64,000 nucleotides of DNA, from NCBI GenBank assembly GCA_025454975.1, contig JALONK010000004.1, forward strand, positions 1 to 64,000. The letters are read 5' to 3'. Positions within the stretch are counted from its first letter, which is position 1, and the number at the start of each line of letters is the position of its first letter. The position numbers were made by a program, and so were the translations under genes. Under the pieces are notes generated by a model that saw only the letters and a list, made by a program, of their open reading frames with translations, was not told the origin of the DNA and searched no databases. Positions 2,063-16,983 of this stretch are shown here, piece by piece. Source of the stretch: Bacteroidia bacterium. GTDB taxonomy: Bacteria; Bacteroidota; Bacteroidia; UKL13-3.

Positions 2063-3937
2063 ATGGCAAGAGGTGGAAGAAATTTAAACAGTAACGGTAA
2101 GCAAAAAGACGAAACTCCGAAAGTAAAAATTACAAAAGAAAGTTTACGAGAAGCCTTAATCTTATTCACGTATTTAAAGCCGTATAAAACCAAATTTATA
2201 CTTAGCTTGGTTTGTATTGCATTATCAGCATTTACTACCAGCATGTTTCCTTTTTTTCTGGGTAAAATGATTGATGCAGCATCTCCGGGCGCTTCCTTAG
2301 GCATGATGGGAAGTTCTCCTTCCATGATAGGATTTTTAGGGTTGTCAAGTGTAAAATGGACATTAAACTTTACATTAACATTAATTTTTGTTCAACTTAC
2401 CTTACAAACCATATTCTCGTTTATGCGAGTGTATTTACTCACCGAGGTTGGCGAAAAAGCACTTGCCGATATGAGAAGGGATGTTTATTCAAAATTATTA
2501 ACCATGCCTATGGGATTTTTCACAGAAAAAAGGGTAGGGGAATTAAGCAATAGAATTTCTTCTGATTTATCGCAAATACAAGATGCAATTTCATTTACTC
2601 TTGCAGAGTTTTTAAGAGGAATTTTTACGTTAATTATCGGCTTAGGATTTATCTTTTGGATTAGCACTAAATTAGCATTGGTTATGTTGGCGGTTGTTCC
2701 TGTAATTGCAGTATTGGCGGTAGTTTTCGGGGTTCGTATAAGAAAAATGGCAAGGAAAGCACAAGATCAACTGGCCGACAGTGGAACTATTGTTCAAGAA
2801 ACATTTCAGGGTATCAGTATTGTTAAAGCCTTTACTAGCGAGTATTACGAAATTAACAGGTATGTGAAAAGTATATATGCTGTGGTTCATACAGCTATTG
2901 CAAATGCGCGTTATCGCGGTACATTTATATCATTTATGATATTTAGTGTATTTGGTGCCATATCATTTGTGATGTGGTTTGGTGCAAATATGATTCAGTC
3001 GGGTGAGTTAACTATAGGGGCATTAACCATGTTTGTTATTTTCAGCATGTTTGTTGGCGGAACATTTGCAGGCTTTGCTGATATGTTTAGTCAACTCCAA
3101 AAAACCTTGGGCGCTACACAAAGTGTAAGGGAAATTCTTAGGGGTGAAGGTGAAGATATAACGATAAGTGAACAACTTCCGGTGGTAGCTTTGCAAGGAG
3201 CTGTAACATTTAAAGAGGTAGCCTTTAGTTATCCATCGCGTGAAGATGTAACGGTATTAAAAAGTATTAGTATGCATGCCGAGTCCGGAAAACGTGTTGC
3301 GATTGTTGGTCCGAGTGGGGCAGGAAAAAGTACCATCGCTTCTTTATTGTTACAATTTTATAAACCAACAAAAGGGGAGGTGTTGTTTGATGGAAAACCT
3401 GCAAATCAAATTTCATTAACCGGATTAAGAAGTCAGTTGGCTTATGTGCCTCAGGATGTATTATTATTTGGCGGAAGTATCAGAGAAAATATTGCTTATG
3501 GTAAACCTGATTATACTGAACAAGAAATTATTGAAGCTGCAAAACAAGCGAACGCACATGATTTTATTTCAGCGTTTCCAGAAGGTTATGATACTATTGT
3601 TGGTGAAAGGGGAATCAAATTATCAGGTGGGCAACGTCAACGCATTGCAATAGCCAGGGCAATTTTACGCAATCCTGTCATTCTTATTTTAGATGAAGCA
3701 ACATCATCATTAGATGGAGAAAGTGAACAATTGGTGCAAGATGCTTTAGAAAATCTAATGAAAAACAGAACCTCGTTTGTTATTGCACATCGTTTAAGTA
3801 CCATACGAAATGCAGACATAATTTTAGTGATAGATAAGGGTTTAGTTGTTGAATCAGGAACACACGAAACACTTATACAAAGAAATGGATTATATAGGCG
3901 ATTGAATGAGATGCAATTTGAGTATAATGAAAGGTGA
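2063..3937 (+). CDS. ABC transporter, fused membrane and ATPase domains (MsbA-like exporter)
   Basis: The 624-residue half-transporter is expected to work as a homodimer in the inner membrane, exporting a lipid or drug-like substrate. The N-terminal half holds about six membrane segments, starting near residue 42 (FILSLVCIALSAF). The C-terminal nucleotide-binding domain has Walker A GPSGAGKST at residues 416-424, the signature LSGGQRQR at 520-527, Walker B VILILDEATSSLD and the switch His in IAHRLST. The order transmembrane domain then ATPase is that of type IV exporters such as MsbA. The substrate is not readable from the sequence. The gene is monocistronic and converges with the DISARM-like operon, 92 bases away. 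Confidence 0.9.
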   Translation: MARGGRNLNSNGKQKDETPKVKITKESLREALILFTYLKPYKTKFILSLVCIALSAFTTSMFPFFLGKMIDAASPGASLGMMGSSPSMIGFLGLSSVKWTLNFTLTLIFVQLTLQTIFSFMRVYLLTEVGEKALADMRRDVYSKLLTMPMGFFTEKRVGELSNRISSDLSQIQDAISFTLAEFLRGIFTLIIGLGFIFWISTKLALVMLAVVPVIAVLAVVFGVRIRKMARKAQDQLADSGTIVQETFQGISIVKAFTSEYYEINRYVKSIYAVVHTAIANARYRGTFISFMIFSVFGAISFVMWFGANMIQSGELTIGALTMFVIFSMFVGGTFAGFADMFSQLQKTLGATQSVREILRGEGEDITISEQLPVVALQGAVTFKEVAFSYPSREDVTVLKSISMHAESGKRVAIVGPSGAGKSTIASLLLQFYKPTKGEVLFDGKPANQISLTGLRSQLAYVPQDVLLFGGSIRENIAYGKPDYTEQEIIEAAKQANAHDFISAFPEGYDTIVGERGIKLSGGQRQRIAIARAILRNPVILILDEATSSLDGESEQLVQDALENLMKNRTSFVIAHRLSTIRNADIILVIDKGLVVESGTHETLIQRNGLYRRLNEMQFEYNER

Positions 3938-4029
3938 TATGACTATATTTATTAAATGACTTTAGAATTATGATTCACTTTTTTATTTCGTGTAGACTTA
4001 TGCTTGAACGATTTTAAAAGTGTGATTTT

Positions 4030-5913
4030 TTAGAGTAATATAAAATTAAAATATCCAATTGACGGATTATCTAACTCTCCAATCAACATCGCTCTATCAA
4101 GAAGCATATTTGATTCTTCACAACATGTTTCCGGTAACAACGAACAGTTATGACACGCTGATAGATTGCAAGAGTTCGGTCCTTGCCCATCGCTGTCAAT
4201 GCAGATAGGGTCGCTTGAACACCATCTTGCATTTTCAATAGCATTATAAACTATCGTTTCAAGATTGCCAGGCTTCCCTTGACGAACAAGCCCACCTAAA
4301 GAACCTTCTGAATCACCAGATGCAGTGTAAATTAAGACACCGTTCATGGTTTCATTTAATAATTCAAGATTGCAATAAATTCTTTCTCTCAAAGCAGAAC
4401 TTCCATAACCACATTCGTAACTGAACTGGTTTATTACCAAATGAGCAAATGTGTGAATCAAAATAAATTCAGGTTTTATTTCCCTTCTCTTTTGTCCTTT
4501 CAATTCCCGTGGACGGTTGTAGTTGTCAGATAAAAAATTTGCTCTCTTAATCACTTCATCTTTTGCAGCCCACTCTTTCAAACGCTTCTCATTGAACTCA
4601 AAGAAAACACCTTCGCCTCTCACAACTACTGCCGGAAGCCATTCAATACGCTGTCCAAGTTTTATGAAGTTCTTTTTTTCAGTCAATGTTTTTCCATCAT
4701 CTGGAAGCCATCTTGAAAATCCTACGAAAGCTCTTGTCTCTCTTAACTTGTGAACTAGTCCAATACTCTTAAATCCTGACTGAATAATTTTAAAATCGGA
4801 ATCTTGCTCATAATTTACTGACGATTCCTTTTCACAATAAAAATCTTCATTTTCCCAACCGCCCCCAGCAATTAAATAATCATACTCCATTTTTCTGTAC
4901 TTTTCTTCTTCATCTCCCATTTCATTTAAATTCGGTCCTGTTTGTTTCTTATTGGCTGCATCCAATAATTTCTCTGTATAGTAATCTCTTTTCTCAGGAT
5001 TAAATTTTTGTTCTGCAACCAACTCAAAACGCATTCTATCAAATTCGCCATTTACCAATCCGGAGGATAGCCAATTCCAATTCTTTTCTAATACTTCAAT
5101 AATTTTTCTGTCAATTGATTTTTCCCATTGAGGCAAATAGATTGAACTTCGAACCTGTGAGAAGTATACATTTGATGCACCTTTTTGAACTACCCTTAAG
5201 TCCTCTCCACAATGAATTGCATTGTCTCTGTCAGCTTCTTGTCCTAACCACGGTCTACCACCTGAACATGTTACTCCAATTTTTGTAAGTGATTTTTCGT
5301 TGAAAGCACCCGCCATTGTTTTGTGTGCTCCACAACTACAAGTAATTTCAATACCAGATAATGTACCTGAACTTCTCCCTGCTCTCAATCTCAAATTATG
5401 TTGTCCTTCAGGACGAGCGCCGTTATGCACCCATTGCATAAAAGGGAAATCTTCAATGTGCCCCTTTTCACAAATAGCGATAAAGCGAACCGGAATCAAT
5501 CGCTGTCTTTTCCTTTCTGCAATTTCGTTACAAGACCTTCCTGAGCTAAAAGAAATTCCTGAGCAAGTTGGTTTCTGTGAATCGTAAATTGAAACTTTCT
5601 CCATGTGTCCGCACCTTGTGCAATAATGCCAACGTGGAAATCTTACGAATGGAATTTTGAGTGACGGATTTGTAACACCTTGACCAGGGTCTCTGAAATC
5701 AGGCGGCAATCTGAAATCTTTTACACCTAATCTTTTTGCTAATCTTTCTTCGGTTACTTTAAATTCATCCAACTCAGAAATCGTTCTGAATTTTTCTTCC
5801 CACATATCAAGCCCGACAACCATCAATGATTCATCCTTTGGAAAATTAATCATTTGTCCAATCCCCCACGGAGAAATTAACTGCGACCTTCTTATTGGTT
5901 TTTTAGCTGGCAT
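4030..5913 (-). CDS. drmB: DISARM protein DrmB (DUF1998 domain)
   Basis: This 627-residue protein is the last gene of the five-gene operon. The N-terminus carries the DrmB-type opening RRSQLISPWGIGQMINFP. Cys-rich stretches with probable zinc ligands follow: C98/C101/C117/C128, C148, C192/C194, C216 and C235. The C-terminal DUF1998 region contains LIHTFAHLVINQFSYECGYG, then LIYTASGDSEGSLGGLVRQG, and ends in a Cys cluster (CNLSACHNCSLLPETCC). In DISARM, DrmB associates with the helicase DrmA to recognise and act on incoming phage DNA. It starts three bases after the drmA stop, so the two are probably translationally coupled. No terminator of clear quality was found in the 92 bases before the convergent ABC transporter gene. 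Confidence 0.9.
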   Translation of the reverse strand: MPAKKPIRRSQLISPWGIGQMINFPKDESLMVVGLDMWEEKFRTISELDEFKVTEERLAKRLGVKDFRLPPDFRDPGQGVTNPSLKIPFVRFPRWHYCTRCGHMEKVSIYDSQKPTCSGISFSSGRSCNEIAERKRQRLIPVRFIAICEKGHIEDFPFMQWVHNGARPEGQHNLRLRAGRSSGTLSGIEITCSCGAHKTMAGAFNEKSLTKIGVTCSGGRPWLGQEADRDNAIHCGEDLRVVQKGASNVYFSQVRSSIYLPQWEKSIDRKIIEVLEKNWNWLSSGLVNGEFDRMRFELVAEQKFNPEKRDYYTEKLLDAANKKQTGPNLNEMGDEEEKYRKMEYDYLIAGGGWENEDFYCEKESSVNYEQDSDFKIIQSGFKSIGLVHKLRETRAFVGFSRWLPDDGKTLTEKKNFIKLGQRIEWLPAVVVRGEGVFFEFNEKRLKEWAAKDEVIKRANFLSDNYNRPRELKGQKRREIKPEFILIHTFAHLVINQFSYECGYGSSALRERIYCNLELLNETMNGVLIYTASGDSEGSLGGLVRQGKPGNLETIVYNAIENARWCSSDPICIDSDGQGPNSCNLSACHNCSLLPETCCEESNMLLDRAMLIGELDNPSIGYFNFILL

Positions 5914-5916
5914 AAT

Positions 5917-8900
5917 TTAATTGTCAATGTTTAGGTATTCTGCCGGAATAATATACGCTTCACAAGTGGAATCAACATTTCTCATTGATGTTGGTGTTGA
6001 CCATGCTCTTGCTTTTATATCTTCTGAAGGATTTGTTCCTGCGGGATACATTAGTGGAATGTTTGTTTGCTGTCCGAATGAACCATACACAAGTGGTAAT
6101 TCATTTTTCCAGTATTCCAGTTTTTCTTCAATCAGTTCAAGTGTCTTGTCGTATTCTTCATCATCAATCAAATGAACTCTGTCAAAAATTATTTGGGTTA
6201 CTCTTTCAATGATTTCTTTTTGAGGAAAAGGTCTTGGAGCTGTTGCACTTTGGTCTGTTGAGTAAAATCTAATCAGTCCAACTAAGATTGCATGCAACCC
6301 TCTTTCTCTAGCCGGTGCTGAAAAAGGTGTAACACTTGTTGGTTCAACTTTGCTGTAAATTTTTGAGTGATATTCTTGGAAATGTTCAAAGTGCGAACGA
6401 TCTCTTGGTTTTGAGCAGTTGTAAATTGTAAAGACAAGTCCGGGACATCTCTTTGAACGACCAACACGGCTTGTTGCCTGAATATATTCCGATGTTGTTT
6501 TTGGTTGACCGATAACGGTCATCAAACCTAGTCGTGGAATGTCAACGCCAACTGAAATCATATTTGTTGCAAGACAAACATCAACCGGATATTCATTTTT
6601 ATCTCCTGTCCATGATTTTGATAGTTGTTCCAAGTATTCAGGAATGTCATTGCTGTTAATACGACTTGTCAATTCAATATTTCTGTTGATGAATCTTCTT
6701 TCATCACCTTTGATTGCTTTCCGTATCCAAATGGAATTCATGTATTCTCGTATGTCTGCACGAATGAGTGTAGCTGCATGTCCTAGCTCCCGAATACTGT
6801 TGAAGTAAGTCAAGGCAGTCCAATATGGATCTCTTAAAATTTCTTCTGCAACTGAAATTGATTTCACAGATTGAAGTAAAGCGGATAAAATCCTTACCTG
6901 TGCAGTTGCATGTGAAGGTAGAGCAGATGCAAATATGCCTGTGTAAATTCTGCCTGTGCTTGTTGTGTCCTCGTATGCAAAGAATGAATCACCCGCACTT
7001 AAACATTGTGCAGGAAAAATATTGACATTTTTTGTCCCTCTGCCATAGAGCGAGTTGATTTGTTCTTTGGCTCTGCTGATTGTTGCTGACGATGCAATAA
7101 TTTTTGGTTTGATACTATTTGCTGTGCAAAGTTCTTCAATCATTGTTTCATACAAACCCACCATCGAACCCAACGGACCCGAAATCAAATGCAACTCATC
7201 TTGAATAATCAATTCAGGTGGTGAAAACATTCTTTCATTTCCTCTAAATCCAAAAATTGTTTTCGCTTCTGGCTTCCATGTGAGCATAGCAAACTTGTCA
7301 ACTGTTCCGATTAAGAGAGTAGGTGGGTTGTCATAAATATCTTCGTCAATAACTACAAGAGGTAAATTGAAATCGGGTTTTGAGAAATCGCATTGTTGAT
7401 TGTCGCACTGATAAATGATTGTTTCTTTCGTTCCTATTTTTCTTCTCTTATATCCTTTCACTTTGTTAGTCCTTGCCTCCTTTAGATAACCCATTTGTGA
7501 ACCGCACCATGGGCATTTCAAAACGATGAAAGGATTTTCTTCCTCTCTTCCTTGTTCCATTATCTGAAATGCTCTTCTTGCTTCGTCTCTTCTGTTTGGT
7601 GTTGAATCAGAACCAACCCACAGTCCGATTGTAATTCTCGCTGTGCCTAATTCTTCTTCATTCTCTTTTCTGATTTTATCGCAAGCACAAATCAATGCGG
7701 CTGCTCTTTGAAACTGTTGTGCTGTTAGTAGTCGCAAAGTGTAACGCATGAGCACAGTTGTGCCTGAATCGTTTTTATCTTTTAATCTTTTCAGAAAAAT
7801 TGTAAACGCTGACAATCCTAAATACGCTTCGGTTTTTCCTCCACCAGTCGGAAACCATATCAAGTCAACCATTTCTCTATCTTCATGACTTGGATCCAAC
7901 ATTGCATTGAGGTTCATTAAAATAAATGCAAGTTGAAAAGGACGCCATGATCCAAGCCCTGGTTTCCATGTTGTACTGTCATTTATATTTGGAATTTCAG
8001 CATGCTTCACTCCGGTAATATTTCCTTTATCAATAATCCAGTTTCTCGTTTCAATGCCGTAATGAAGTTGTTGCAATAACATAGCACGATTCATCAACTT
8101 GAAAGCACGATTTACTTTTTCATTGCTTTTTAAAACTTCAATTCCCTCCTTCATTCTTTGTAAACACAAACGACAAGTATCAATGTGACGCAATGCAGTT
8201 TGTAAAAGTTCATCTTTCAATTCTGCGTTTGCAATTTCATTCTGCCTATCTATCCATGCTTCATATTCCGCATTCAGTTTTACAAGATTGGTTGTAATGT
8301 CTTTGTCCGACAAATCACTCAAGTCAAACATTTTAAGCACAACATTTTTCAATTCATTAGGCACGATTGGTTTTATCTCATAAACTGGAATTGCTTCTGT
8401 TGTAATTGAATCAGTAAAGTCAATATCGTTATCATTCCATGCGGGTGAACAACCGTGTCCAACTGCAAATGTTTTTTTCTTTCGGAACAAAAGCAGATTT
8501 GACTTTTCATCATCCTTGTCAGTTTTAGATGCAGCTGCTTTGTATGGACAAAAACATTTTTCATTTGCTGTAACAGAAAATGAAACCTGAAAAAAACAAT
8601 CTTCATTCTTGATATTTTCTGCTCCTCCGGTATTCAGGTTTATCAACGTGAATGTGAGTAGATGAATATTGTTTGTTGAATTATTTTCATGAGTTCTGTT
8701 TCGGATATTCAGTTTGAGATTAATTTCCTTTCCGTCTTTATCAACCAATAATTTGTCAATGGATTTACCTGACTGCAACGGAATTTCACTTGCATTTAAA
8801 GTAAATTCCTGGTCAAGTGAAATTCGGTAATATGCTTTTCTTGAAACAGAAGTTCCATCTTCTTTTTGATAGCTGTATTCTTTTATTTCATAAACACCAA

Positions 8901-9285
8901 GTGTTGCTTTTATAGTGAAGCCGTCTTTCGGAATTATTGAAAAGCAACTGAATCCCATTGCAGAAGGAAGAAATGAATTTGCTAGTCCGATTTCTTCTTC
9001 AAAATCTTCTGCCATGTCTACTGGCGCTTTGCTTTCTTCAGTTTTTACTGGATCATCTGTTTCTTTTTTTTCTTCTTCAAGTTTCTCTAAAACTTTTTCT
9101 TCCTCTGATGTTGTTGAATCAGCTTTTTCAAAAGTTGCCGCCCTCGGAAATAAAACACCGGCACCATATCTTAATCTTGGTGGCTCGTTAAGAAGTATTT
9201 CTTCTCCGTTCTCTTGTATGTGAGGTTTGATTGGGTCAGGCCCTATCAATTCCTTTTTAATGAATTTTAAAATATCGTCTCTCAT
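5917..9285 (-). CDS. drmA: DISARM helicase DrmA
   Basis: An 1122-residue superfamily 2 helicase. The N-terminal 400 residues are a family-specific domain with an acidic, low-complexity stretch at about 55-100. The motor has Walker A FPTGGGKTEA at 478-487, an inserted zinc motif (C591, C594, C627, C632), DELH at 696-699, motif III ASSATI at 731-736, ATNMISVGVD at 906-915 and motif VI QATSRVGR at 936-943. This length and motif set, together with an adjacent DUF1998 gene, define DrmA. In known DISARM systems DrmA-DrmB binds and loads onto invading DNA. Only one base separates it from the upstream NERD-helicase gene, so it belongs to the same transcript. Confidence 0.9.
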   Translation of the reverse strand: MRDDILKFIKKELIGPDPIKPHIQENGEEILLNEPPRLRYGAGVLFPRAATFEKADSTTSEEEKVLEKLEEEKKETDDPVKTEESKAPVDMAEDFEEEIGLANSFLPSAMGFSCFSIIPKDGFTIKATLGVYEIKEYSYQKEDGTSVSRKAYYRISLDQEFTLNASEIPLQSGKSIDKLLVDKDGKEINLKLNIRNRTHENNSTNNIHLLTFTLINLNTGGAENIKNEDCFFQVSFSVTANEKCFCPYKAAASKTDKDDEKSNLLLFRKKKTFAVGHGCSPAWNDNDIDFTDSITTEAIPVYEIKPIVPNELKNVVLKMFDLSDLSDKDITTNLVKLNAEYEAWIDRQNEIANAELKDELLQTALRHIDTCRLCLQRMKEGIEVLKSNEKVNRAFKLMNRAMLLQQLHYGIETRNWIIDKGNITGVKHAEIPNINDSTTWKPGLGSWRPFQLAFILMNLNAMLDPSHEDREMVDLIWFPTGGGKTEAYLGLSAFTIFLKRLKDKNDSGTTVLMRYTLRLLTAQQFQRAAALICACDKIRKENEEELGTARITIGLWVGSDSTPNRRDEARRAFQIMEQGREEENPFIVLKCPWCGSQMGYLKEARTNKVKGYKRRKIGTKETIIYQCDNQQCDFSKPDFNLPLVVIDEDIYDNPPTLLIGTVDKFAMLTWKPEAKTIFGFRGNERMFSPPELIIQDELHLISGPLGSMVGLYETMIEELCTANSIKPKIIASSATISRAKEQINSLYGRGTKNVNIFPAQCLSAGDSFFAYEDTTSTGRIYTGIFASALPSHATAQVRILSALLQSVKSISVAEEILRDPYWTALTYFNSIRELGHAATLIRADIREYMNSIWIRKAIKGDERRFINRNIELTSRINSNDIPEYLEQLSKSWTGDKNEYPVDVCLATNMISVGVDIPRLGLMTVIGQPKTTSEYIQATSRVGRSKRCPGLVFTIYNCSKPRDRSHFEHFQEYHSKIYSKVEPTSVTPFSAPARERGLHAILVGLIRFYSTDQSATAPRPFPQKEIIERVTQIIFDRVHLIDDEEYDKTLELIEEKLEYWKNELPLVYGSFGQQTNIPLMYPAGTNPSEDIKARAWSTPTSMRNVDSTCEAYIIPAEYLNIDN

Positions 9286-9286
9286 A

Positions 9287-11026
9287 CTAATTGAGTTTGC
9301 GTTTAAGAATTTCCCTGTATTCGTTTCTCATTGATTCGGAAATGAAAAGAATCAGTCCGTATCGTGCTCTACTCATTCCAACATACAAAATCGACTTGGC
9401 GATTTCACTTGATAAATCTTCAATGTCGGTTATCAAAATATAATTGCTCTCCATGCCTTTATATGACTGAATAGTTGCAAAGCCATAGAAACCTTGTGTC
9501 GGTGAAATTTCACTGTTGTTTTTTATTTCTCTGATTGAAAAACCTGGAACTGAATCAGAACATGAGTTTTCAAATTTACGTGGTGATAAAATCACCAACT
9601 CATTCAATGGGAGTTTATTTGATGAAAGTTTTTGCAGTTGCTGTGATAGCAATGTTTTCTGGTGAGCTTCATCATTGTAGAAAATGTATTCAACCGGAAT
9701 TCCTTCAAGATGTTCCAACAAAAATGGTGGCTTCTCAAATCCTGAAATCAGAGAGGTTTCTTCTCCAACTTGCTTAGTGTTCCGGCAATTTATTTTGAGC
9801 AGAAAGTTTGAATGTTGACCTGAATCTTTCAGTAAATCAAGCATTTCTGTTCTGGTCAGCTGTGCATAGATTGCTTGCCTTTCAAAATCACCATATATTT
9901 CCCAATTGCCGTTTTGTAGACCACCTGTTACCATTGAATCAAACAGTTTAAGATATTCTTCTCTGATTAAGTCCTGACCCTCATCAACAATCAACTTGTC
10001 AAACTTTTTACTTATTCCTTTTTGATAAATATCTTTCAGTAAAAGCGGCAAATACTTACTGTAGAAATCCTGCTTACTGCTCTGTGCTTTATCGTAGTCA
10101 AATCCTTTTGACTGCTCAAATAAAAAACTGTGCAAACTTGAAACTGTGATTTTGTCTTTCCATTCTTCAACTTGTTTCTGCATCCACTCTCCAATTAAGC
10201 GGTTGTAACAAGTAAGGAAAACAGTTTTGCCTTCTGCTGCTGCTCTCACTGCCGATTCAATTGCAATCATTGTCTTACCCGTGCCTGCACTTCCCTGTGT
10301 AACACTTCTTTCATTCAATTGAATTGAATCAAGAATTCTGTATTGTTCTTCGGTGTATTTTTTTACTTCTTTATCAAACTCAGTCAATCGTTCTTTCACT
10401 GTCCGAACTCTTTCAAAATCTCCTCTCAGAAAATCGCAAAGCGAATTCAAATCGTTTTTATCAGGCAATGAATCCTTTTCTGAAAACCACCTTTGGTTTT
10501 TGTGTTTGTTGGTGAACTGCTTTACAAGATTCTGGAAAAATTTTTCCGTTCCATTTTTGATAGAATCTTTATCAAGAATCTGCCAGGGTTCATATTCAAC
10601 ACTATGTTTGTCAAAACTGATGTGTGGGAATGCACACAAAAAGCCGGAAAGAATTTTTGTGAACTTGTGTCGTTTGCCGAATTCTTTTTCAATAGCTGAA
10701 CGCAAAGAGAACATTGCATCTCTTGCCTGGTTGAATGGACCTACATTGCTTGTGTTTGTTATATTTAATTTGTTTGTGTAGTGCCAAACCCCGTCAATAC
10801 ATTTTACATCACCGCCTTTAACTTCCATTACAAAAATGCCACCGCCTGGAATCAAAATCAGAAAATCAATTTCACCATACAAGCGAACTGTATGCTGCGA
10901 TAAGTTGAGTGAATGAAGCACGATCCAATCTTTGGTGAACTGTCTGTTCTTGAAAATATCAAACAGCATTTTCTCACCTGTGCTTTTGCAGCTTTTATCA
11001 ATATATGGTGGTAGCAGTTTTGCCAT
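9287..11026 (-). CDS. NERD nuclease-like domain fused to a superfamily 1 helicase (in the place of drmC)
   Basis: A 579-residue two-domain protein. Residues about 15-130 are a NERD (nuclease-related) domain with E18, the GEID motif ending at D54, and EVK at 68-70, the acidic and lysine positions expected of a PD-(D/E)XK-type active site. Residues about 225-579 are a UvrD/Rep-like superfamily 1 motor. Walker A is GSAGTGKT at 245-252, Walker B is LIVDEGQD ending at residue 352, then a conserved NCRNTKQ segment, the Q-S-Y-K-G-M-E motif and a terminal VGMSRARYGL motif VI. The start overlaps the upstream stop by one base (TGATG). Known DISARM operons carry a phospholipase-D protein, DrmC; none is present here. 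This nuclease-helicase may supply that activity or form an extra module. Both roles are inference. Confidence 0.85.
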   Translation of the reverse strand: MAKLLPPYIDKSCKSTGEKMLFDIFKNRQFTKDWIVLHSLNLSQHTVRLYGEIDFLILIPGGGIFVMEVKGGDVKCIDGVWHYTNKLNITNTSNVGPFNQARDAMFSLRSAIEKEFGKRHKFTKILSGFLCAFPHISFDKHSVEYEPWQILDKDSIKNGTEKFFQNLVKQFTNKHKNQRWFSEKDSLPDKNDLNSLCDFLRGDFERVRTVKERLTEFDKEVKKYTEEQYRILDSIQLNERSVTQGSAGTGKTMIAIESAVRAAAEGKTVFLTCYNRLIGEWMQKQVEEWKDKITVSSLHSFLFEQSKGFDYDKAQSSKQDFYSKYLPLLLKDIYQKGISKKFDKLIVDEGQDLIREEYLKLFDSMVTGGLQNGNWEIYGDFERQAIYAQLTRTEMLDLLKDSGQHSNFLLKINCRNTKQVGEETSLISGFEKPPFLLEHLEGIPVEYIFYNDEAHQKTLLSQQLQKLSSNKLPLNELVILSPRKFENSCSDSVPGFSIREIKNNSEISPTQGFYGFATIQSYKGMESNYILITDIEDLSSEIAKSILYVGMSRARYGLILFISESMRNEYREILKRKLN

Positions 11027-13533
11027 CAGAAAATTTCTTTTTGAAGTAATCTGTTCACATAACGAGCATCAATACTCTCCCAAGCATTTGAAATCTCTAT
11101 AACTTTCAAAAAAAATACAATTCCTAATCCTTCAATGGATATTTGTTTGTTGATTACAGAACTGTCAGCATACTGATGTATTTGTGCTTTGATTTTGCTT
11201 ATAATAAAATCTGATGCATTGTGTCTCCATCCTTTCATTTTTGTTATTGAATCTCTTACTTTATTAATATTATCACTCAATAAATCTGACTTTGTAAGTA
11301 AAGCGATACTTATTAAGTCCGAATCATCATCGGGACCAATTCTACTTTCATCGTGTAACCACGTTCTGATTGTAACCTCATGTTTCTTGCAGTCATTCTT
11401 CCGCAAATCCTCAACTAATTTTTTGAAATCATTTCCGATAGAAGCGTAGTAATCTTTCAAAAGATTTTTCCAAAGTTCTGTCCACTGTTTTACAGAAGCC
11501 AGTTCTTTTGTGTTGGTATTTTTCTCAACCAACTCAACCAAAATATCTCTGTCGGTGTTAATCAAAGCAATCACATCACCCGTTTGTAACGATTCAACTT
11601 TTCTCCTGTGAAGATTTGCTTTCTCACCCTTTCTTTCAATCAATTCATTTATGACTAAAAATTTGTGCGATTCAGTTGTGTAAATAAAGAAGTCGCTTTC
11701 AAATACAATTCGTTTTGCTTTTATGCTGTCAATCAAATTTCCTTTTGCTACATATCTTGAATACTGTGCATTGTCAAGTTTGAATTCAAAATCTAAAATG
11801 TCAAACGAACTTTCAGAAGTTGTTTCGATTACATCATCACCTGAATACAAATCGCTGAAACCTTTCCGCTTTGATGAATCAGTTTCTGAACGGATGCCTT
11901 TGCTGTTTATGGTTGCCTTAATGTTCTCACTGTATTGTTTGTTTCTTCTTTGCAAAGAGTTGTAATACTTGTTTTCAAACTGGTAGAACAAAACTGTAAG
12001 TTCAGAAAAAAGAAATGATGAAAGAATTCTGTTGATGTTGTTTGACTTTGCCCAGCCAGTTAGAATTGCTTTTTGAGGTTTGCTTGAAAGTAATTTATCG
12101 TTAACATCTGCAACAGATATTACTCTTGGTTTCTGAATGTGTGCCGGAAATGAATCATCCAATGCTTTTGCTTCTTCTTCAGTAGAGCAAATGATGTAAT
12201 CGTATTGCTTTGAACTCATGAGTGTTTTCAACCTTGCACACTTTTCAGATGGCTGTGTTGCGAACCTTGCAATAACCGATTTTAAAAGAGAAATGCTTTC
12301 TTCAATTGGTTTGTGAGAATCACCCAACCATATTCTGCACCGGAGAAACAAGTTTTCAATGGCGTTTATCTTTGAATGGAGAACTGAAATTTCTTCTACG
12401 GCTGGTATGTGTGCAATTCTTGAAATAAGATTGGTCAACTGAATGAGAGAAATTTTCAGAGAAGTCAAATCATTGTTTAATTCATCCTTTTTAATGGAAT
12501 GAATTTTTTGCGTGGTTGCTTCAAGTTCTGCATCAAGGCAAATCTCTTTTACAACATTGAAAGAAATATATTTTCTCATCTTCTTCTCGAAAGAATGAAA
12601 GGGAGAATGGTTTTCTGAATGGTCAAGTTTTAAATTCTCCTTTGTGAAATTAAAAAACTCAAAGCCATAGTTACCGATGGTTTCAAAACTTTCAATCTCT
12701 GATAAATCCGTAATTAGAATTGTTGGAATATTCTTTACATCAATGTCTGAGAAATCAGTTCCTCTTTCCTGTATAGTGGAGAATCCATCAATGATAATCT
12801 TTGAAACTGAACTTGAAGAAAGCGTAACATACAAAGCAAGAGTAGAAAGATTGTTTGAAATAAGCAGTGGGCTGTTTATGTCTGCTGCACCGTTTTCATC
12901 AATCTTACCACTCTGGAAATATTCAGGTAATGAAGCAAGATTCATTGCTATGTCTTCAATAGAATCATCGTAAGATTTGAATTTGCTTACAAGGCAAATT
13001 TTATTTTTCATGAACTCCTTGTTGCCGTAGGTATTTATTTCCAACAATTCGTCAGTTGGAGTAATGATTTTTCCCGGAAGGGCTTGCTTAACTCTTTTTA
13101 GAGATGAGAGTTGTCTTGTTTGTTCTGTTCGTTGAAGTTTTATTGACTGGGTAATGTCAATAGTGAAAGTTGCAATGTTTGGCTCCTTGCCCGCTCTAAA
13201 AGCTACAGAGTTGTTTCTGATGCCTGCCCATTCAACAATTGCATCCCTGTTGAGTTTTAATTTATCACCAAGATTATATTTCCTGTATGATGCAAAGATT
13301 TCCTCTTTGTATTGCGTGTAGTCATTTTCAATTAGAAACAAAACTGTTGGCACAGATAACCATTGAGCAGAATACTCTTTTGATGGAAAAACCAAACAAA
13401 GCTTGTTGGTCGTGTTATTTGAAAAAAAATCAGATATAAGTTGAAGTGAATCTTTCAGAGGCAATGGAAGCGAATGAGCTTCGTCTTGCCCCGCATAAGA
13501 GTATTGCAGTTTCTGAATTAAATCCTGATTCAT
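11026..13533 (-). CDS. drmE: DrmE-like DISARM protein
   Basis: This 835-residue protein has no catalytic motif that I can identify. The assignment to DrmE, the class 2 DISARM protein of unknown biochemical function, rests on three points. Its length fits. It lies between the cytosine methyltransferase and the DrmA/DrmB genes. Its C-terminal region has RTWLHDESRIGPDDDSDL (about residues 725-742) followed by a D-x-I-x-x-A pattern, which resembles DrmE-type C-termini as I recall them. A middle segment alternates strands and helices (YIICSTEEEAKALDD, then AILTGWAK), like a nucleotide-binding fold without a P-loop. It is 22 bases after the methyltransferase stop and overlaps the next start by one base. 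The family call is less certain than for its neighbours. Confidence 0.6.
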   Translation of the reverse strand: MNQDLIQKLQYSYAGQDEAHSLPLPLKDSLQLISDFFSNNTTNKLCLVFPSKEYSAQWLSVPTVLFLIENDYTQYKEEIFASYRKYNLGDKLKLNRDAIVEWAGIRNNSVAFRAGKEPNIATFTIDITQSIKLQRTEQTRQLSSLKRVKQALPGKIITPTDELLEINTYGNKEFMKNKICLVSKFKSYDDSIEDIAMNLASLPEYFQSGKIDENGAADINSPLLISNNLSTLALYVTLSSSSVSKIIIDGFSTIQERGTDFSDIDVKNIPTILITDLSEIESFETIGNYGFEFFNFTKENLKLDHSENHSPFHSFEKKMRKYISFNVVKEICLDAELEATTQKIHSIKKDELNNDLTSLKISLIQLTNLISRIAHIPAVEEISVLHSKINAIENLFLRCRIWLGDSHKPIEESISLLKSVIARFATQPSEKCARLKTLMSSKQYDYIICSTEEEAKALDDSFPAHIQKPRVISVADVNDKLLSSKPQKAILTGWAKSNNINRILSSFLFSELTVLFYQFENKYYNSLQRRNKQYSENIKATINSKGIRSETDSSKRKGFSDLYSGDDVIETTSESSFDILDFEFKLDNAQYSRYVAKGNLIDSIKAKRIVFESDFFIYTTESHKFLVINELIERKGEKANLHRRKVESLQTGDVIALINTDRDILVELVEKNTNTKELASVKQWTELWKNLLKDYYASIGNDFKKLVEDLRKNDCKKHEVTIRTWLHDESRIGPDDDSDLISIALLTKSDLLSDNINKVRDSITKMKGWRHNASDFIISKIKAQIHQYADSSVINKQISIEGLGIVFFLKVIEISNAWESIDARYVNRLLQKEIF

Positions 13534-13555
13534 ATTGGTTCACTTCAATGTTGCT

Positions 13556-14794
13556 TTAGCCGTTTAGTAAAAGATACTTTAATGATGCTGCAATTTTTTC
13601 TGCCATCAATGGCGGAACTGCATTTCCAATTTGTTTGAACGCTGCTGTCCTACCTCCTTCAAAAAAGTAATTGTCAGGGAAAGATTGAATTCTTGCGGCT
13701 TCACGAACTGAAATAGAGCGCACTTGTTTTGGATCAGGATAGATATAATAATGACCGTCTTTCGCAATATGAGCAACTACTGTGTGGGAATATCCGGTTG
13801 GGTCAATCACTTTGTATCTGTCTAAAAATGCTTCGGTGTTTTTATGAGTTTGTAATCTTTTTGGAATATCGTTGTACTTTAGTCTCTGTCGGTCATTCAA
13901 CCATTTATCAATTGCAAGGGAATAAATTTCCAAATCCCTGTCGTTGTGGTTTCGTGTTATGTGTTGCGTTGTGTAATTGATTCCATTTCTTGTTTCTGTT
14001 TTCTTCAAATACTCATTTATATTTTTTGTGTAGCCGACAACTTCAAGTTCTTGTCCTGGCTTCAAATAGGGTAGGTCAAAAAACAAATCTCGTTTTGTCT
14101 GCCAGTTGTTTTCCATTTTTTGAAGTTCGGGAAACTGGAATTTAGTTTTTCCTTTTCTTCCGATAATAATTACCCTTCTTCTTTTTTGCAGCACTCCATA
14201 TTCTTCTGCATTTAAAACTTTCATATCGGCTGAGTAACCTATTTCCTCAAACAGTTCCAACATTTCATTAAGATACTTTGCATTTCCTGCTGTTAGCAAA
14301 CCCAACACATTTTCAAATACAAAGTATTTTGGCTTATAACGAATGAGAAACTTTGCATAGTAGCGGAACAAAAAATTTCTTTTGTCTCCTTTCATTCTGT
14401 TTGGATCTCGGCTTCTTCCCACAAGTGAATACGCCTGACAAGGCGGACCACCAATGATTACATCAACTTTCTTTTCGTCAAGTTGCGAATCAATTATTTT
14501 AAAGATGCTTTCAATTGTATTGTCAGTAATTTCTTCATTGATAACAGATTCAAGCAAATGCTGTGGGATGGAATCCCATAATTCATTTCTTGAAATGTCT
14601 TGTTGTAGATAACTATAATACTTTGTCAGATTTTTTTTCAGACTGAAGTGGTGAAATGCAATTCTGGTTTTCAATGTGTCGGCTGCTTCCGCACTCATCT
14701 CCACATGTGCAACCGGCTCAAACTTCTCACGGATAAAACCTTCCGAAAGTCCACCTGCACCGGCAAAAAGGTCTATGTAATTGAGTTTGCTCAT
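13556..14794 (-). CDS. drmMII: DNA (cytosine-5-)-methyltransferase, DISARM DrmMII
   Basis: This 412-residue C5-cytosine methyltransferase is the first gene of the operon. Motif I is FAGAGG at 10-15, motif IV is GGPPCQAYS with the catalytic C119, motif VI is ENV at 161-163, motif VIII is QKRRR at 203-207, and motifs IX/X end in ARIQSFPDNYFF and QIGNAVPP. All motifs are intact, so activity is expected. In class 2 DISARM this enzyme methylates host sites so that self DNA is spared. No restriction endonuclease gene is adjacent, which supports DISARM rather than classical restriction-modification. The target-recognition region between motifs VIII and IX is about 150 residues, and the recognised sequence cannot be read from it. 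No convincing promoter was identified upstream. Confidence 0.9.
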   Translation of the reverse strand: MSKLNYIDLFAGAGGLSEGFIREKFEPVAHVEMSAEAADTLKTRIAFHHFSLKKNLTKYYSYLQQDISRNELWDSIPQHLLESVINEEITDNTIESIFKIIDSQLDEKKVDVIIGGPPCQAYSLVGRSRDPNRMKGDKRNFLFRYYAKFLIRYKPKYFVFENVLGLLTAGNAKYLNEMLELFEEIGYSADMKVLNAEEYGVLQKRRRVIIIGRKGKTKFQFPELQKMENNWQTKRDLFFDLPYLKPGQELEVVGYTKNINEYLKKTETRNGINYTTQHITRNHNDRDLEIYSLAIDKWLNDRQRLKYNDIPKRLQTHKNTEAFLDRYKVIDPTGYSHTVVAHIAKDGHYYIYPDPKQVRSISVREAARIQSFPDNYFFEGGRTAAFKQIGNAVPPLMAEKIAASLKYLLLNG

Positions 14795-15729
14795 GCTTAA
14801 TTTACTACGATAATTTTTTTAAATGTATCAAAATTTATTCAAGGTTTTCTTTTATATTATTACTTTTAGTCTACGTTCTAAGATGGTAAAAAACATTCCA
14901 ACCCTCATATTTAAAGTCAGCAGTGTTTTCCGCGTCTCCTTGTTTGTTGCCTTCAATTCTGGTCTGCATAACGTAAACATAATTTAATATTCGATGGTGA
15001 ATAAGTATGCGGGAGCTTGCACTCTTGTGACTATCATATACATATTGGTTTCTGTGAGGGTAGTTAGAGGAATTTGTGCAATATACTCAGATAAATGAAT
15101 TTTAATTTTTTTGTGCGGTGACGACGCTTTAATTTTTTCGATGCTTAGCAATGAGCACCTGACTTTCCGACCAAACTGTCCCAAAGTTATATTGCCTTTA
15201 TGTAGCTTTTTTATAATCAAATTAATTACATTAAGTTTAATTTCAGTTTACAGCAAATCGTTTAGATCTTCAATTGTATTAGTGTTGAGTTGGTAATAAA
15301 TGAATGTTATTCCCCCACCCATCATCCCAATCTTAAATACAATAACTTAACCCATTCCCCTTTTTTAACTAAATTTTCAATAAAACTTTTGGCTTGAAGT
15401 TGAGTTATGGTTTTCATTGTTATAAACGGATATATACGGATACAAATAAGTAAATTAAATATTAAATTCCAAGAAAATTTATGAGTGATTATGTGCAAAT
15501 CATCTAAAAGCTAAACTATGCCTATATAATAGCTTGCCAAAAATAATGCTAGTGTTTTTGCATATTAAAGAAGTAGGTAAATTTATTGTATTGCAAAAAA
15601 CTTAAAGTGTTGATTGTATTACGTCAAAAAGCATATTCATTGTCCCCCCCCCAATTAGCAATTATTTTATAATGAGTTAAACTAAAGAAAACATTCATCA
15701 ATCAATTTTGATGCATCTTAATCTTGAAT
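14795..15729. other. 935-bp gene-poor spacer upstream of the DISARM operon
   Basis: By far the longest non-coding stretch in the window. On the minus strand it holds a 78-codon frame (14984-15220). In another frame a 32-codon stretch from an ATG at 14969 to a stop at 14871 has protein-like composition (GDAENTADFKYEGWNVFYH). Neither resembles anything I recognise, and they may be decayed gene ends. A run of nine C lies at 15644-15652. No tRNA, insertion sequence or terminal repeat was seen. The operon promoter should lie in the first 150 bases, but no clean TTTG-N18/19-TAnnTTTG match was found there. Confidence 0.5.
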
Positions 15730-15948
15730 ATGAAAAATTTACTTTACTCATTTGTACTTTTTATGTTAGGTGTAGGTTTTTTAACCGGTACCCACCTCAA
15801 CCTGCAATCAATTGCATTCTCGGCGGTTTGTTTTATGTTTTTGTCGTTCCCGCTTATTAGTTGTATTGGAAGTAAATTGTTTAAAAAATCAAACCTCGCT
15901 TCTAATGACAATTCTCAAGAGCGCAGTGATATAGGCTTTCAAGCCTAA
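15730..15948 (+). CDS. Small two-segment membrane protein, unknown
   Basis: This 72-residue frame begins at the ATG at 15730; an in-frame TTG six bases upstream is a less likely start. Two hydrophobic segments are visible, at about residues 3-22 (LLYSFVLFMLGVGFLTG) and 28-48 (IAFSAVCFMFLSFPLISCIG), followed by a charged, probably cytoplasmic tail rich in S, N and D. The composition is that of a real membrane protein, but no family is recognised. It is a plus-strand gene isolated between the spacer and the convergent FAH-family gene 15 bases away. A run of nine C lies about 80 bases upstream and could affect its expression. Confidence 0.5.
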   Translation: MKNLLYSFVLFMLGVGFLTGTHLNLQSIAFSAVCFMFLSFPLISCIGSKLFKKSNLASNDNSQERSDIGFQA

Positions 15949-15963
15949 CTATTGTCGTTACGC

Positions 15964-16983
15964 TTATTGTTGAGCCACTGATTTTTTCAGTTCAAGAATG
16001 CTAAAGTCAGTATCAACTTTTTTAATGGTGTTTACCAATTTACCTAAACCTGTAATTTCTAGTTCAACCACATCACCATCTTTCAACCATTGGGTTTGGT
16101 AGTTTTTATCATGAAGTAATCCGGTGCCGTTCAATTCTAGGAAACATCCTGTTCCAACAGTTCCACTTCCAATCACATCTCCGGGTAAAATATCTACTCC
16201 ATAAGCGCAACGTTCAATAATTTCGGCAAATGTCCAGTCCATGTCTGCTACATTTCCTTCACTTACCTGAATGCCATTTACAAAACATTTCATCGTTAAA
16301 TTATGATTATTCCCAACATGGTTTGGTTTTGCAGGCACTAAATATTCTTTAAGTTCATCAGGCGTAATTAAATAAGGTCCGATAACGGTACTAAAGTCTT
16401 TTCCTTTCGCCGGACCAAGGTTTAGTAACATTTCTTCCATTTGCAAGGTTCTTGCGCTCATGTCGTTCATAATCATATAACCTGCAATGTATTCATCTGC
16501 TTGAGCTGCCTTTATGTTTCTTCCTTTTTTACCAATCACAACTGCAATTTCCAGTTCGAAATCAAGTTTAGCAAAATGATCCGGCATACATTCAATTTCA
16601 CCCGGACCTTGAATGGCATTATGGTTAGTAAAATAAAATATAGGATATTGATCAAATTCCGGAATCATTGGTACACCGCGGTTTCTTCTAGCTGCGGCTA
16701 CATGTTGACGAAATGCATAACCATCGCGACAGGAAGTAGGCTCATTAACCGGTGCCAATAATGTAACTGCATCTAGAGTAAGATAAGGAATGTTATTAAG
16801 TTTCCCCGATTTTAAATCAGCATCAATAGCTTTTGCCTTATTCATGGCTGTGTCACCTTCAAACAAAAATGCCCTCATGTTATTTGGCAACGAGCTATCA
16901 AGTTGATGTAAACTATAAATATGATTGTGAATTAAAATTCCAAGATCCGTTTTATGTTGATGCTGATAGGTTACTAATTTCAT
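15964..16983 (-). CDS. Fumarylacetoacetate hydrolase (FAH) family protein
   Basis: This 339-residue protein has the FAH fold. The N-terminal MKLVTYQHQHKTDLGILIHN and the central LDFELEIAVVIGKKGRN segment carry the metal-binding acidic residues, with a downstream MNDMSARTLQMEE loop, KGKDFSTVIGPYLITPDEL, and the GDVIGSGTVGTGCFLE motif that closes the active site. Family members cleave C-C bonds in aromatic or sugar-acid catabolism (fumarylacetoacetate, acylpyruvates, 2-keto-3-deoxy sugar acids). This length, close to 340 residues, is seen in Bacteroidota proteins annotated as fumarylacetoacetase. The precise substrate is not decidable. It is transcribed with the SPOR-domain and deoC genes on the minus strand, but no functional link is obvious. 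Confidence 0.85.
   Translation of the reverse strand: MKLVTYQHQHKTDLGILIHNHIYSLHQLDSSLPNNMRAFLFEGDTAMNKAKAIDADLKSGKLNNIPYLTLDAVTLLAPVNEPTSCRDGYAFRQHVAAARRNRGVPMIPEFDQYPIFYFTNHNAIQGPGEIECMPDHFAKLDFELEIAVVIGKKGRNIKAAQADEYIAGYMIMNDMSARTLQMEEMLLNLGPAKGKDFSTVIGPYLITPDELKEYLVPAKPNHVGNNHNLTMKCFVNGIQVSEGNVADMDWTFAEIIERCAYGVDILPGDVIGSGTVGTGCFLELNGTGLLHDKNYQTQWLKDGDVVELEITGLGKLVNTIKKVDTDFSILELKKSVAQQ

What the first reader, a model, noticed from the sequence alone, without database searches (positions are those of the whole stretch)
4030..14794. Class 2 DISARM-like defence operon lacking drmC, with a nuclease-helicase inside it
Five minus-strand genes with gaps of 22, -1, 1 and 3 bases encode a C5-cytosine methyltransferase, a DrmE-like protein, a NERD/SF1 helicase, DrmA and DrmB. 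The methyltransferase, DrmA and DrmB motifs are all intact. In published DISARM (Ofir and co-workers) a phospholipase-D protein, DrmC, accompanies DrmA/DrmB, and it was reported as dispensable. Here no PLD motif (HxKxxxxD) appears in any of the five proteins or nearby. The NERD-helicase gene is embedded by a one-base overlap on one side and one base on the other, so it looks like a stable member of the operon. This may be an unrecognised DISARM subtype.
Basis: partly seen in the sequence, partly recalled or inferred. Interest (0 to 1): 0.85.

Follow-up and report, generated by a model that had tools for sequence, protein, structure and literature searches.

The report
DISARM variant with built-in nuclease-helicase
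This is a five-gene operon related to the DISARM bacterial anti-phage system in which the usual accessory nuclease, DrmC, is missing and a different, intact DNA-cutting helicase sits in the operon; the same arrangement recurs in at least twelve bacterial phyla, so it looks like a real and apparently undescribed DISARM subtype that could explain how DISARM destroys phage DNA.

Summary
Observation confirmed. Minus-strand genes at 14794-4030 encode DrmMII, a DrmE-family protein, a NERD/SF1 helicase, DrmA and DrmB, with the stated gaps and no DrmC. The sequence is Bacteroidota-like and the operon stands alone among housekeeping genes.

Among the 80 closest DrmA loci (75 usable), 39 in 12 phyla carry a NERD-helicase directly upstream of drmA, often with a 4-base overlap. 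None of these has drmC; one other locus does. All 31 aligned NERD-helicases keep the PD-(D/E)xK residues E52, D54, E68, K70 and the SF1 motifs checked. NERD-helicase divergence tracks DrmA (matrix correlation 0.93) almost as well as DrmB does (0.95). On plasmids, 10 drmA records have an adjacent NERD-helicase, 19 have drmC, none both. An AlphaFold model of DrmE resembles an SF2 helicase core but lacks a P-loop.

Best reading: a DISARM variant in which DrmAB senses unmethylated phage DNA ends and the NERD-helicase is the cis-encoded nuclease. The mechanism is inferred. It is not strict class 2 DISARM: drmC, which PADLOC requires, is absent, and DrmE matches the DrmE family model, not the canonical one. 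No description was found in the searched literature. New variant of a known kind.

The parts
13556..14794 (-). drmMII: C5-cytosine DNA methyltransferase, 412 aa, first gene of the operon; PCQ motif (GGPPCQAYS) intact
   Evidence: PADLOC DrmMII E=5e-166; Pfam DNA_methylase 227 bits
11026..13533 (-). drmE-family gene, 835 aa; predicted degenerate SF2-helicase-like core (residues ~1-540) without Walker A, plus a C-terminal region
   Evidence: NF038316 559 bits vs cut-off 80; PF24957 DrmE_C; model pLDDT 79.5; Foldseek/VIA matches to SF2 helicases; no Walker A at the expected place
9287..11026 (-). NERD nuclease - SF1 helicase fusion, 579 aa; proposed replacement nuclease of the system
   Evidence: PF08378 and SF1 helicase matches; 29-31 orthologues with invariant catalytic residues; model pLDDT 86.8
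10670..10981 (-). NERD (PD-(D/E)xK) nuclease domain, residues 16-119, active-site candidates E52, D54, E68, K70
9338..10357 (-). SF1 helicase region, residues 224-563 (Walker A GSAGTGKT at 245; DEGQD at 348; R415; K523-G524; R553)
5917..9285 (-). drmA: YprA-family SF2 helicase, 1122 aa; FPTGGGKTEAYL and QDELH motifs intact
   Evidence: NF038325 993 bits vs cut-off 950; homologous to solved Serratia DrmA 7s9v, E=1.6e-152
4030..5913 (-). drmB: DUF1998/MZB zinc-binding partner of DrmA, 627 aa
   Evidence: NF038324 476 bits vs cut-off 240; PF09369
14795..15963 (.). 1.17-kb region upstream of the operon without a gene of 90 aa or more; presumed to hold the promoter (not shown)

Best explanation
The operon is a DISARM-type anti-phage system of a drmC-free subtype, drmMII-drmE-nerdH-drmA-drmB. 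By homology to DISARM, DrmMII methylates host DNA, and DrmA-DrmB form the sensor that loads on unmethylated DNA with a 5' single-stranded end and translocates on it. The NERD-helicase, an SF1 motor fused to a PD-(D/E)xK nuclease, then unwinds and cuts the captured phage DNA, doing the job left to DrmC or to a host PLD nuclease in other DISARMs. The DrmE-family protein, which looks like a helicase fold without an ATP-binding loop, most likely acts as a non-catalytic DNA-binding scaffold joining the NERD-helicase to DrmAB. Shown here: gene content, intact motifs, recurring operon structure, mutual exclusion with drmC, co-divergence with DrmA. Inferred: defence activity, nuclease activity, complex formation and the role of DrmE.
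For: DrmA, DrmB, DrmMII and DrmE-family profile matches. NERD-helicase directly upstream of drmA in 39 of the 75 closest usable drmA loci, 12 phyla, 38 of 39 with a gap of 30 bp or less. DrmC in 0 of these; a DrmC HMM built from 7 annotated DrmC found only one other locus. E52, D54, E68, K70 and the SF1 residues invariant in 31 of 31. Distance matrices: DrmA-NERD r=0.93, DrmA-DrmB r=0.95; within the window's clade 0.91 and 0.95. In 296 own-phylum genomes 11 carry a NERD-helicase and 8 of these lie beside DrmA/DrmB. Plasmids: 19 drmA records with drmC, 10 with NERD-helicase, 0 both. In other lineages the NERD-helicase stands after drmB, the usual place of drmC (L015, L017, L018, L019, L140). 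DrmAB sensing of 5'-overhang DNA: PMC9142583.
Against: No experiment. Several related loci keep a DrmE-family gene, DrmA and DrmB without a NERD-helicase (11 of 75; mostly Bacillota), so the nuclease is not obligatory for every relative. The genome also encodes a ClsB-like PLD protein that could act in trans, as proposed for other DISARMs. The locus sample was selected by similarity to the window's DrmA, so frequencies are for that neighbourhood only. The mutual-exclusion test (Fisher p=0.009) is not corrected for relatedness.
Confidence: 0.66

Rival explanations
1. The NERD-helicase is an independent defence or repair gene (RT-associated or Nhi-like NERD-helicase) that travels with DISARM genes as a neighbour, without taking part in DISARM.
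For: The NERD-helicase family also occurs away from drmA (15 of 25 plasmid records; L138 and L139), and PADLOC files its nearest model under DRT.
Against: It sits between drmE and drmA with overlapping or near-overlapping ends, in a fixed order, across 12 phyla; it diverges in step with DrmA; in the NERD tree 47 of 48 upstream-of-drmA proteins group on one side of a branch (support 93, not starred).
Confidence: 0.15
2. An ordinary drmC-less class 2 DISARM in which DrmAB blocks phage DNA and any nuclease is recruited in trans; the NERD-helicase is a dispensable accessory, as DrmC was reported to be.
For: drmC is dispensable and often missing, and a trans PLD nuclease has been proposed (PMC9142583); the genome has a ClsB-like PLD protein; 11 of 75 related loci have a DrmE-family gene, DrmA and DrmB but no NERD-helicase. 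RmuC-domain ShdA proteins are another nuclease-type accessory found in DISARM-like operons (PMC10270631).
Against: Full conservation of both active sites and of gene position across phyla argues for a selected function inside the system. The PLD protein is a cardiolipin-synthase type well below the DrmC cut-off (64 vs 133 bits).
Confidence: 0.15
3. The locus is decayed or misassembled, an artefact.
For: The flanking genes lie on different contigs in related genomes, so the operon sits at a junction not seen in relatives.
Against: All five frames are open and full length with intact motifs; the same order recurs in dozens of unrelated genomes, some on large or complete contigs.
Confidence: 0.01

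Closest known systems
Class 2 DISARM (drmMII, drmE, drmA, drmB, drmC; Ofir et al. 2018, PADLOC type II)
   Same: C5 methyltransferase of DrmMII type, a DrmE-family protein, DrmA and DrmB above curated cut-offs
   Different: no drmC; NERD-helicase inserted between drmE and drmA; DrmE matches the DrmE family model but not the canonical DISARM_DrmE model
Class 1 DISARM (drmD, drmMI, drmA, drmB, drmC)
   Same: DrmA-DrmB core
   Different: no DrmD, no adenine methyltransferase, no DrmC; DrmC-bearing DrmA sit on a different side of the DrmA tree
TALON (Bell et al. 2025, PMC12458937)
   Same: a YprA-family helicase with a NERD-type PD-(D/E)xK nuclease in one operon
   Different: TALON uses an ARMADA-like YprA and TOTE-like TPR-CSD and TBP genes; here DrmA and DrmB are separate DISARM-type genes with a C5 methyltransferase and a DrmE
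NERD-helicases of other defence loci (PADLOC RTasNERD-Hel, C3a187, Nhi)
   Same: same domain order NERD + SF1 helicase; all 29 members match RTasNERD-Hel
   Different: those models come from other system contexts; here the gene is a fixed neighbour of drmA
RmuC-domain ShdA in DISARM-like operons (PMC10270631)
   Same: another nuclease-type accessory embedded in DISARM-like operons
   Different: RmuC domain and about 70 homologues; not a NERD-helicase

Membership tests
DISARM (any class) | DrmA helicase | tested here: met
   NF038325 993 bits vs cut-off 950; homologue of solved DrmA 7s9v
DISARM (any class) | DrmB (DUF1998) as a separate gene | tested here: met
   NF038324 476 bits vs cut-off 240; separate gene 4030-5913
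DISARM (any class) | DNA methyltransferase in the operon | tested here: met
   DrmMII E=5e-166
DISARM (any class) | broad anti-phage activity | not testable with these tools
   needs an experiment
Class 2 DISARM (PADLOC type II) | DrmC PLD nuclease | tested here: not met
   absent in the window and near it; no PLD protein in the genome above the DrmC cut-off; required by PADLOC (PMC9252829)
Class 2 DISARM (PADLOC type II) | DrmE | tested here: inconclusive
   DrmE_fam NF038316 met (559 vs 80 bits), but the canonical NF038323 DISARM_DrmE is not matched by the window protein at E<=1e-5, nor any PADLOC DrmE model
Class 1 DISARM | DrmD SNF2 helicase and DrmMI | tested here: not met
   no such match in the operon or the adjacent genes scanned
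TALON | NERD nuclease in the operon | tested here: met
   PF08378
TALON | ARMADA-like YprA with fused OB-DUF1998 region, TPR-CSD and TBP genes | tested here: not met
   DISARM-type DrmA with DrmB as a separate gene; no TPR-CSD or TBP gene in the operon

The most novel reading that the evidence does not exclude
A widespread, self-contained DISARM subtype that works as a RecBCD/AddAB-like machine: DrmAB captures phage DNA ends, an ATP-inactive SF2-fold DrmE serves as scaffold, and the NERD-SF1 helicase is the built-in motor-nuclease that degrades the DNA.
Probability: 0.3. Interest if true: 0.78.

Novelty: new variant of a known kind. Interest (0 to 1): 0.62.

Why it matters
How DISARM destroys phage DNA is open: DrmC is dispensable and often missing, and the DrmAB structure paper calls it a mystery how degradation is achieved (PMC9142583). 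A recurrent, phylum-crossing operon in which an intact nuclease-helicase takes the place of DrmC, and never coexists with it in the loci examined, gives a cis-encoded candidate effector with nameable catalytic residues and makes the question directly testable. It also suggests a function class for DrmE (ATP-inactive helicase-fold scaffold), and it shows that a definition requiring drmC, such as PADLOC's type II, would not call this system by that name.

Tried and rejected
Viral contigs: the NERD-helicase found no relatives. Phage records: no match. DrmE against plasmids by tblastn: no match, probably because the family diverges fast. Literature: no paper found joining DISARM, DrmE and NERD; Ofir 2018 is not held. 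Empty-site test: left and right flanks are each collinear with same-genus genomes but on different contigs, so the region is at a junction and no clean empty site could be shown. Defence-island idea: the other sampled genes of the window are housekeeping or unassigned, so the operon is solitary. Promoter and terminator scans gave no more than shuffles. The ~330-aa upstream partner in related loci (X) has no Pfam match; in long DrmE forms (L033) a weak, sub-threshold DUF1232 hit suggests X is fused there; not followed further. L114 (Lactiplantibacillus), which I grouped as DrmE-without-NERD in the DrmA tree, was not among the DrmE HMM hits when checked later, so that single label should be ignored.

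Full report
OBSERVATION. The five minus-strand ORFs are at 13556-14794 (412 aa), 11026-13533 (835 aa), 9287-11026 (579 aa), 5917-9285 (1122 aa) and 4030-5913 (627 aa), with gaps of 22, -1, 1 and 3 bases. Profile searches give DrmMII, DrmE family, NERD plus SF1 helicase, DrmA and DrmB; DrmE_fam, DrmA and DrmB pass the curated NCBIfam cut-offs. No PLD motif lies in the five proteins or near drmA. In the whole genome (98% complete) the only PLDc_2 proteins are ClsB-like and polyphosphate kinase. The SecA next door fits the PRK12901 model best; from my own knowledge of that model I take the host to be Bacteroidota.

SURROUNDINGS. The operon stands alone among housekeeping genes (alanine dehydrogenase-like, ABC transporter, FAA hydrolase, deoC, secA). 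In same-genus genomes each flank is conserved (about 70-80% DNA identity) but the two flanks lie on different contigs, so the 12-kb operon sits at a junction not present in relatives. No DrmE relative was found in eight same-genus genomes, which fits horizontal gain. The nearest DrmA found is in the anammox bacterium Candidatus Brocadia pituitae (85% over residues 392-1122).

RELATED LOCI. A profile scan of 84,980 species genomes with a DrmA alignment returned the 80 best loci; 75 hold a DrmA of 900 aa or more. A NERD-helicase is directly upstream of drmA in 39, from 12 phyla, 38 of them with a gap of 30 bp or less (many ATGA-type -4 overlaps; the larger overlaps come from my crude choice of start codon). 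A C5 methyltransferase lies within 9 kb in 32, and a DrmE HMM match in 22, with another large ORF directly upstream of the NERD gene in 10 more. The usual order is [X ~330 aa] - DrmE-like - NERD-helicase - DrmA - DrmB. DrmC occurs in one of the 75, and that locus has no upstream NERD-helicase.

INDEPENDENT SAMPLES. In 296 genomes of the window's own phylum, a NERD-helicase profile hit 11 genomes; 8 are beside DrmA and DrmB, one more ends at a contig edge after a DrmE-like gene, two are unrelated loci, and none of the DrmAB loci has DrmC. The profile was built from DISARM-linked proteins, which favours them. In the plasmid collection, 55 records hold DrmA (E<1e-40); 19 have DrmC adjacent, 10 have the NERD-helicase adjacent, none both (Fisher one-sided p=0.009, not corrected for relatedness). 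In alphaproteobacterial plasmids and one Bacteroidota genome the NERD-helicase stands after drmB, where DrmC normally is (L015, L017, L018, L019, L140). These proteins group apart from the upstream type, which suggests more than one recruitment of the same nuclease type to DrmAB.

CO-DIVERGENCE AND TREES. Over 40 loci, pairwise distances of DrmA and NERD-helicase correlate at r=0.93, close to DrmA-DrmB at 0.95 (0 of 2000 permutations as high); in the window's clade alone 0.91 and 0.95. In the DrmA tree the window lies in a clade of 45 rows (support 98) with 35 upstream-NERD loci and no DrmC, while all DrmC loci lie in another clade that has no upstream-NERD locus. FastTree only; some long branches.

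THE PROTEINS. The NERD-helicase keeps E18, H38, E52, D54, E68, K70 and Q100 of a PD-(D/E)xK site, and the Walker A, DExQD, D380/Q384, R415, K523-G524 and R553 helicase residues, in all 31 aligned sequences. Its model (pLDDT 86.8) has closest folds in Schlafen-11, Upf1, Dna2 and UvrD; by sequence the closest solved relatives are HelD-type helicases, Schlafen-11 and GajB. The DrmE model (pLDDT 79.5) matches SF2 helicases over residues ~1-540 (Foldseek E to 8e-6; VIA Z about 13 to ALC1, UvsW and RecQ). At the place of the P-loop DrmE reads CLVFPSKEYSAQW; no aligned DrmE has a Walker A there (two stray pattern matches elsewhere). So it is predicted to be an ATP-inactive helicase fold. The overall TM-scores are low, so this is a domain-level resemblance.

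MECHANISM. DrmAB of Serratia binds 5'-overhang DNA, is autoinhibited by a loop and is sensitive to methylation; DrmC does not co-purify and is dispensable; how DNA is degraded is called a mystery (PMC9142583). Here a dedicated nuclease-helicase is encoded between drmE and drmA. The simplest model is that it is the effector, with DrmE as scaffold and DrmMII protecting the host. Everything after 'gene content and conservation' is inference.

KNOWN OR NEW. Bell et al. 2025 (PMC12458937) describe DISARM as typically carrying the PLD nuclease DrmC, report a NERD nuclease only for TALON (a different YprA clade), and note many uncharacterized DISARM-like classes. No paper in the searched library joins DISARM with a NERD-helicase in this way; subscription papers and supplements could not be read. 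I therefore call it a new variant of a known kind: DISARM-like, not strict class 2 because drmC is absent and the DrmE is a family member rather than the canonical one.

LIMITS. The locus sample is biased towards the window's DrmA; gene calling and labels come from simple ORFs and HMMs built here; loci are counted, not independent events; and there is no experiment.

Noticed in passing
L023 (Candidatus Brocadia pituitae) 7578-14064: A DrmA/DrmB pair 77% identical in DNA to the window's, but DrmE, the NERD-helicase and the first 391 residues of DrmA are gone; between a DrmMII-like gene (52% identity) and the truncated DrmA lies a 256-aa protein similar to phosphorothioate-DNA restriction endonucleases. 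It looks like a recombinant with a different nuclease.
   Followed up: partly
L030, L032, L036, L037, L039, L054 and others, directly upstream of the DrmE-like gene: A ~330-aa protein without Pfam match precedes short (~520 aa) DrmE-like genes; long (~1100 aa) DrmE forms such as L033 seem to carry it as an N-terminal fusion with a weak DUF1232-like hit. The window's DrmE lacks it.
   Followed up: partly
L067, L072, L073, L078, L086, L089, L090, L095, L098, L100, L101: A distinct actinobacterial DrmAB architecture: a ~1600-aa protein (ResIII/DEAD helicase plus a weak Sacsin-like match in L067), a ~600-aa UvrD-type helicase, DrmA and mostly DrmB, without DrmC.
   Followed up: no
L021 (Paracoccus versutus pTAV4): A 2052-aa ORF labelled DrmA, long enough to be a DrmA-DrmB fusion, is followed by a NERD-helicase.
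   Followed up: no
L013 6705-8117 (Tsukamurella): A RelA/SpoT-domain protein sits between a C5 methyltransferase and a UvrD helicase in a DrmAB operon.
   Followed up: no
window 3924-15981: The operon occupies a junction: left and right flanks are each conserved in same-genus genomes but on different contigs.
   Followed up: partly
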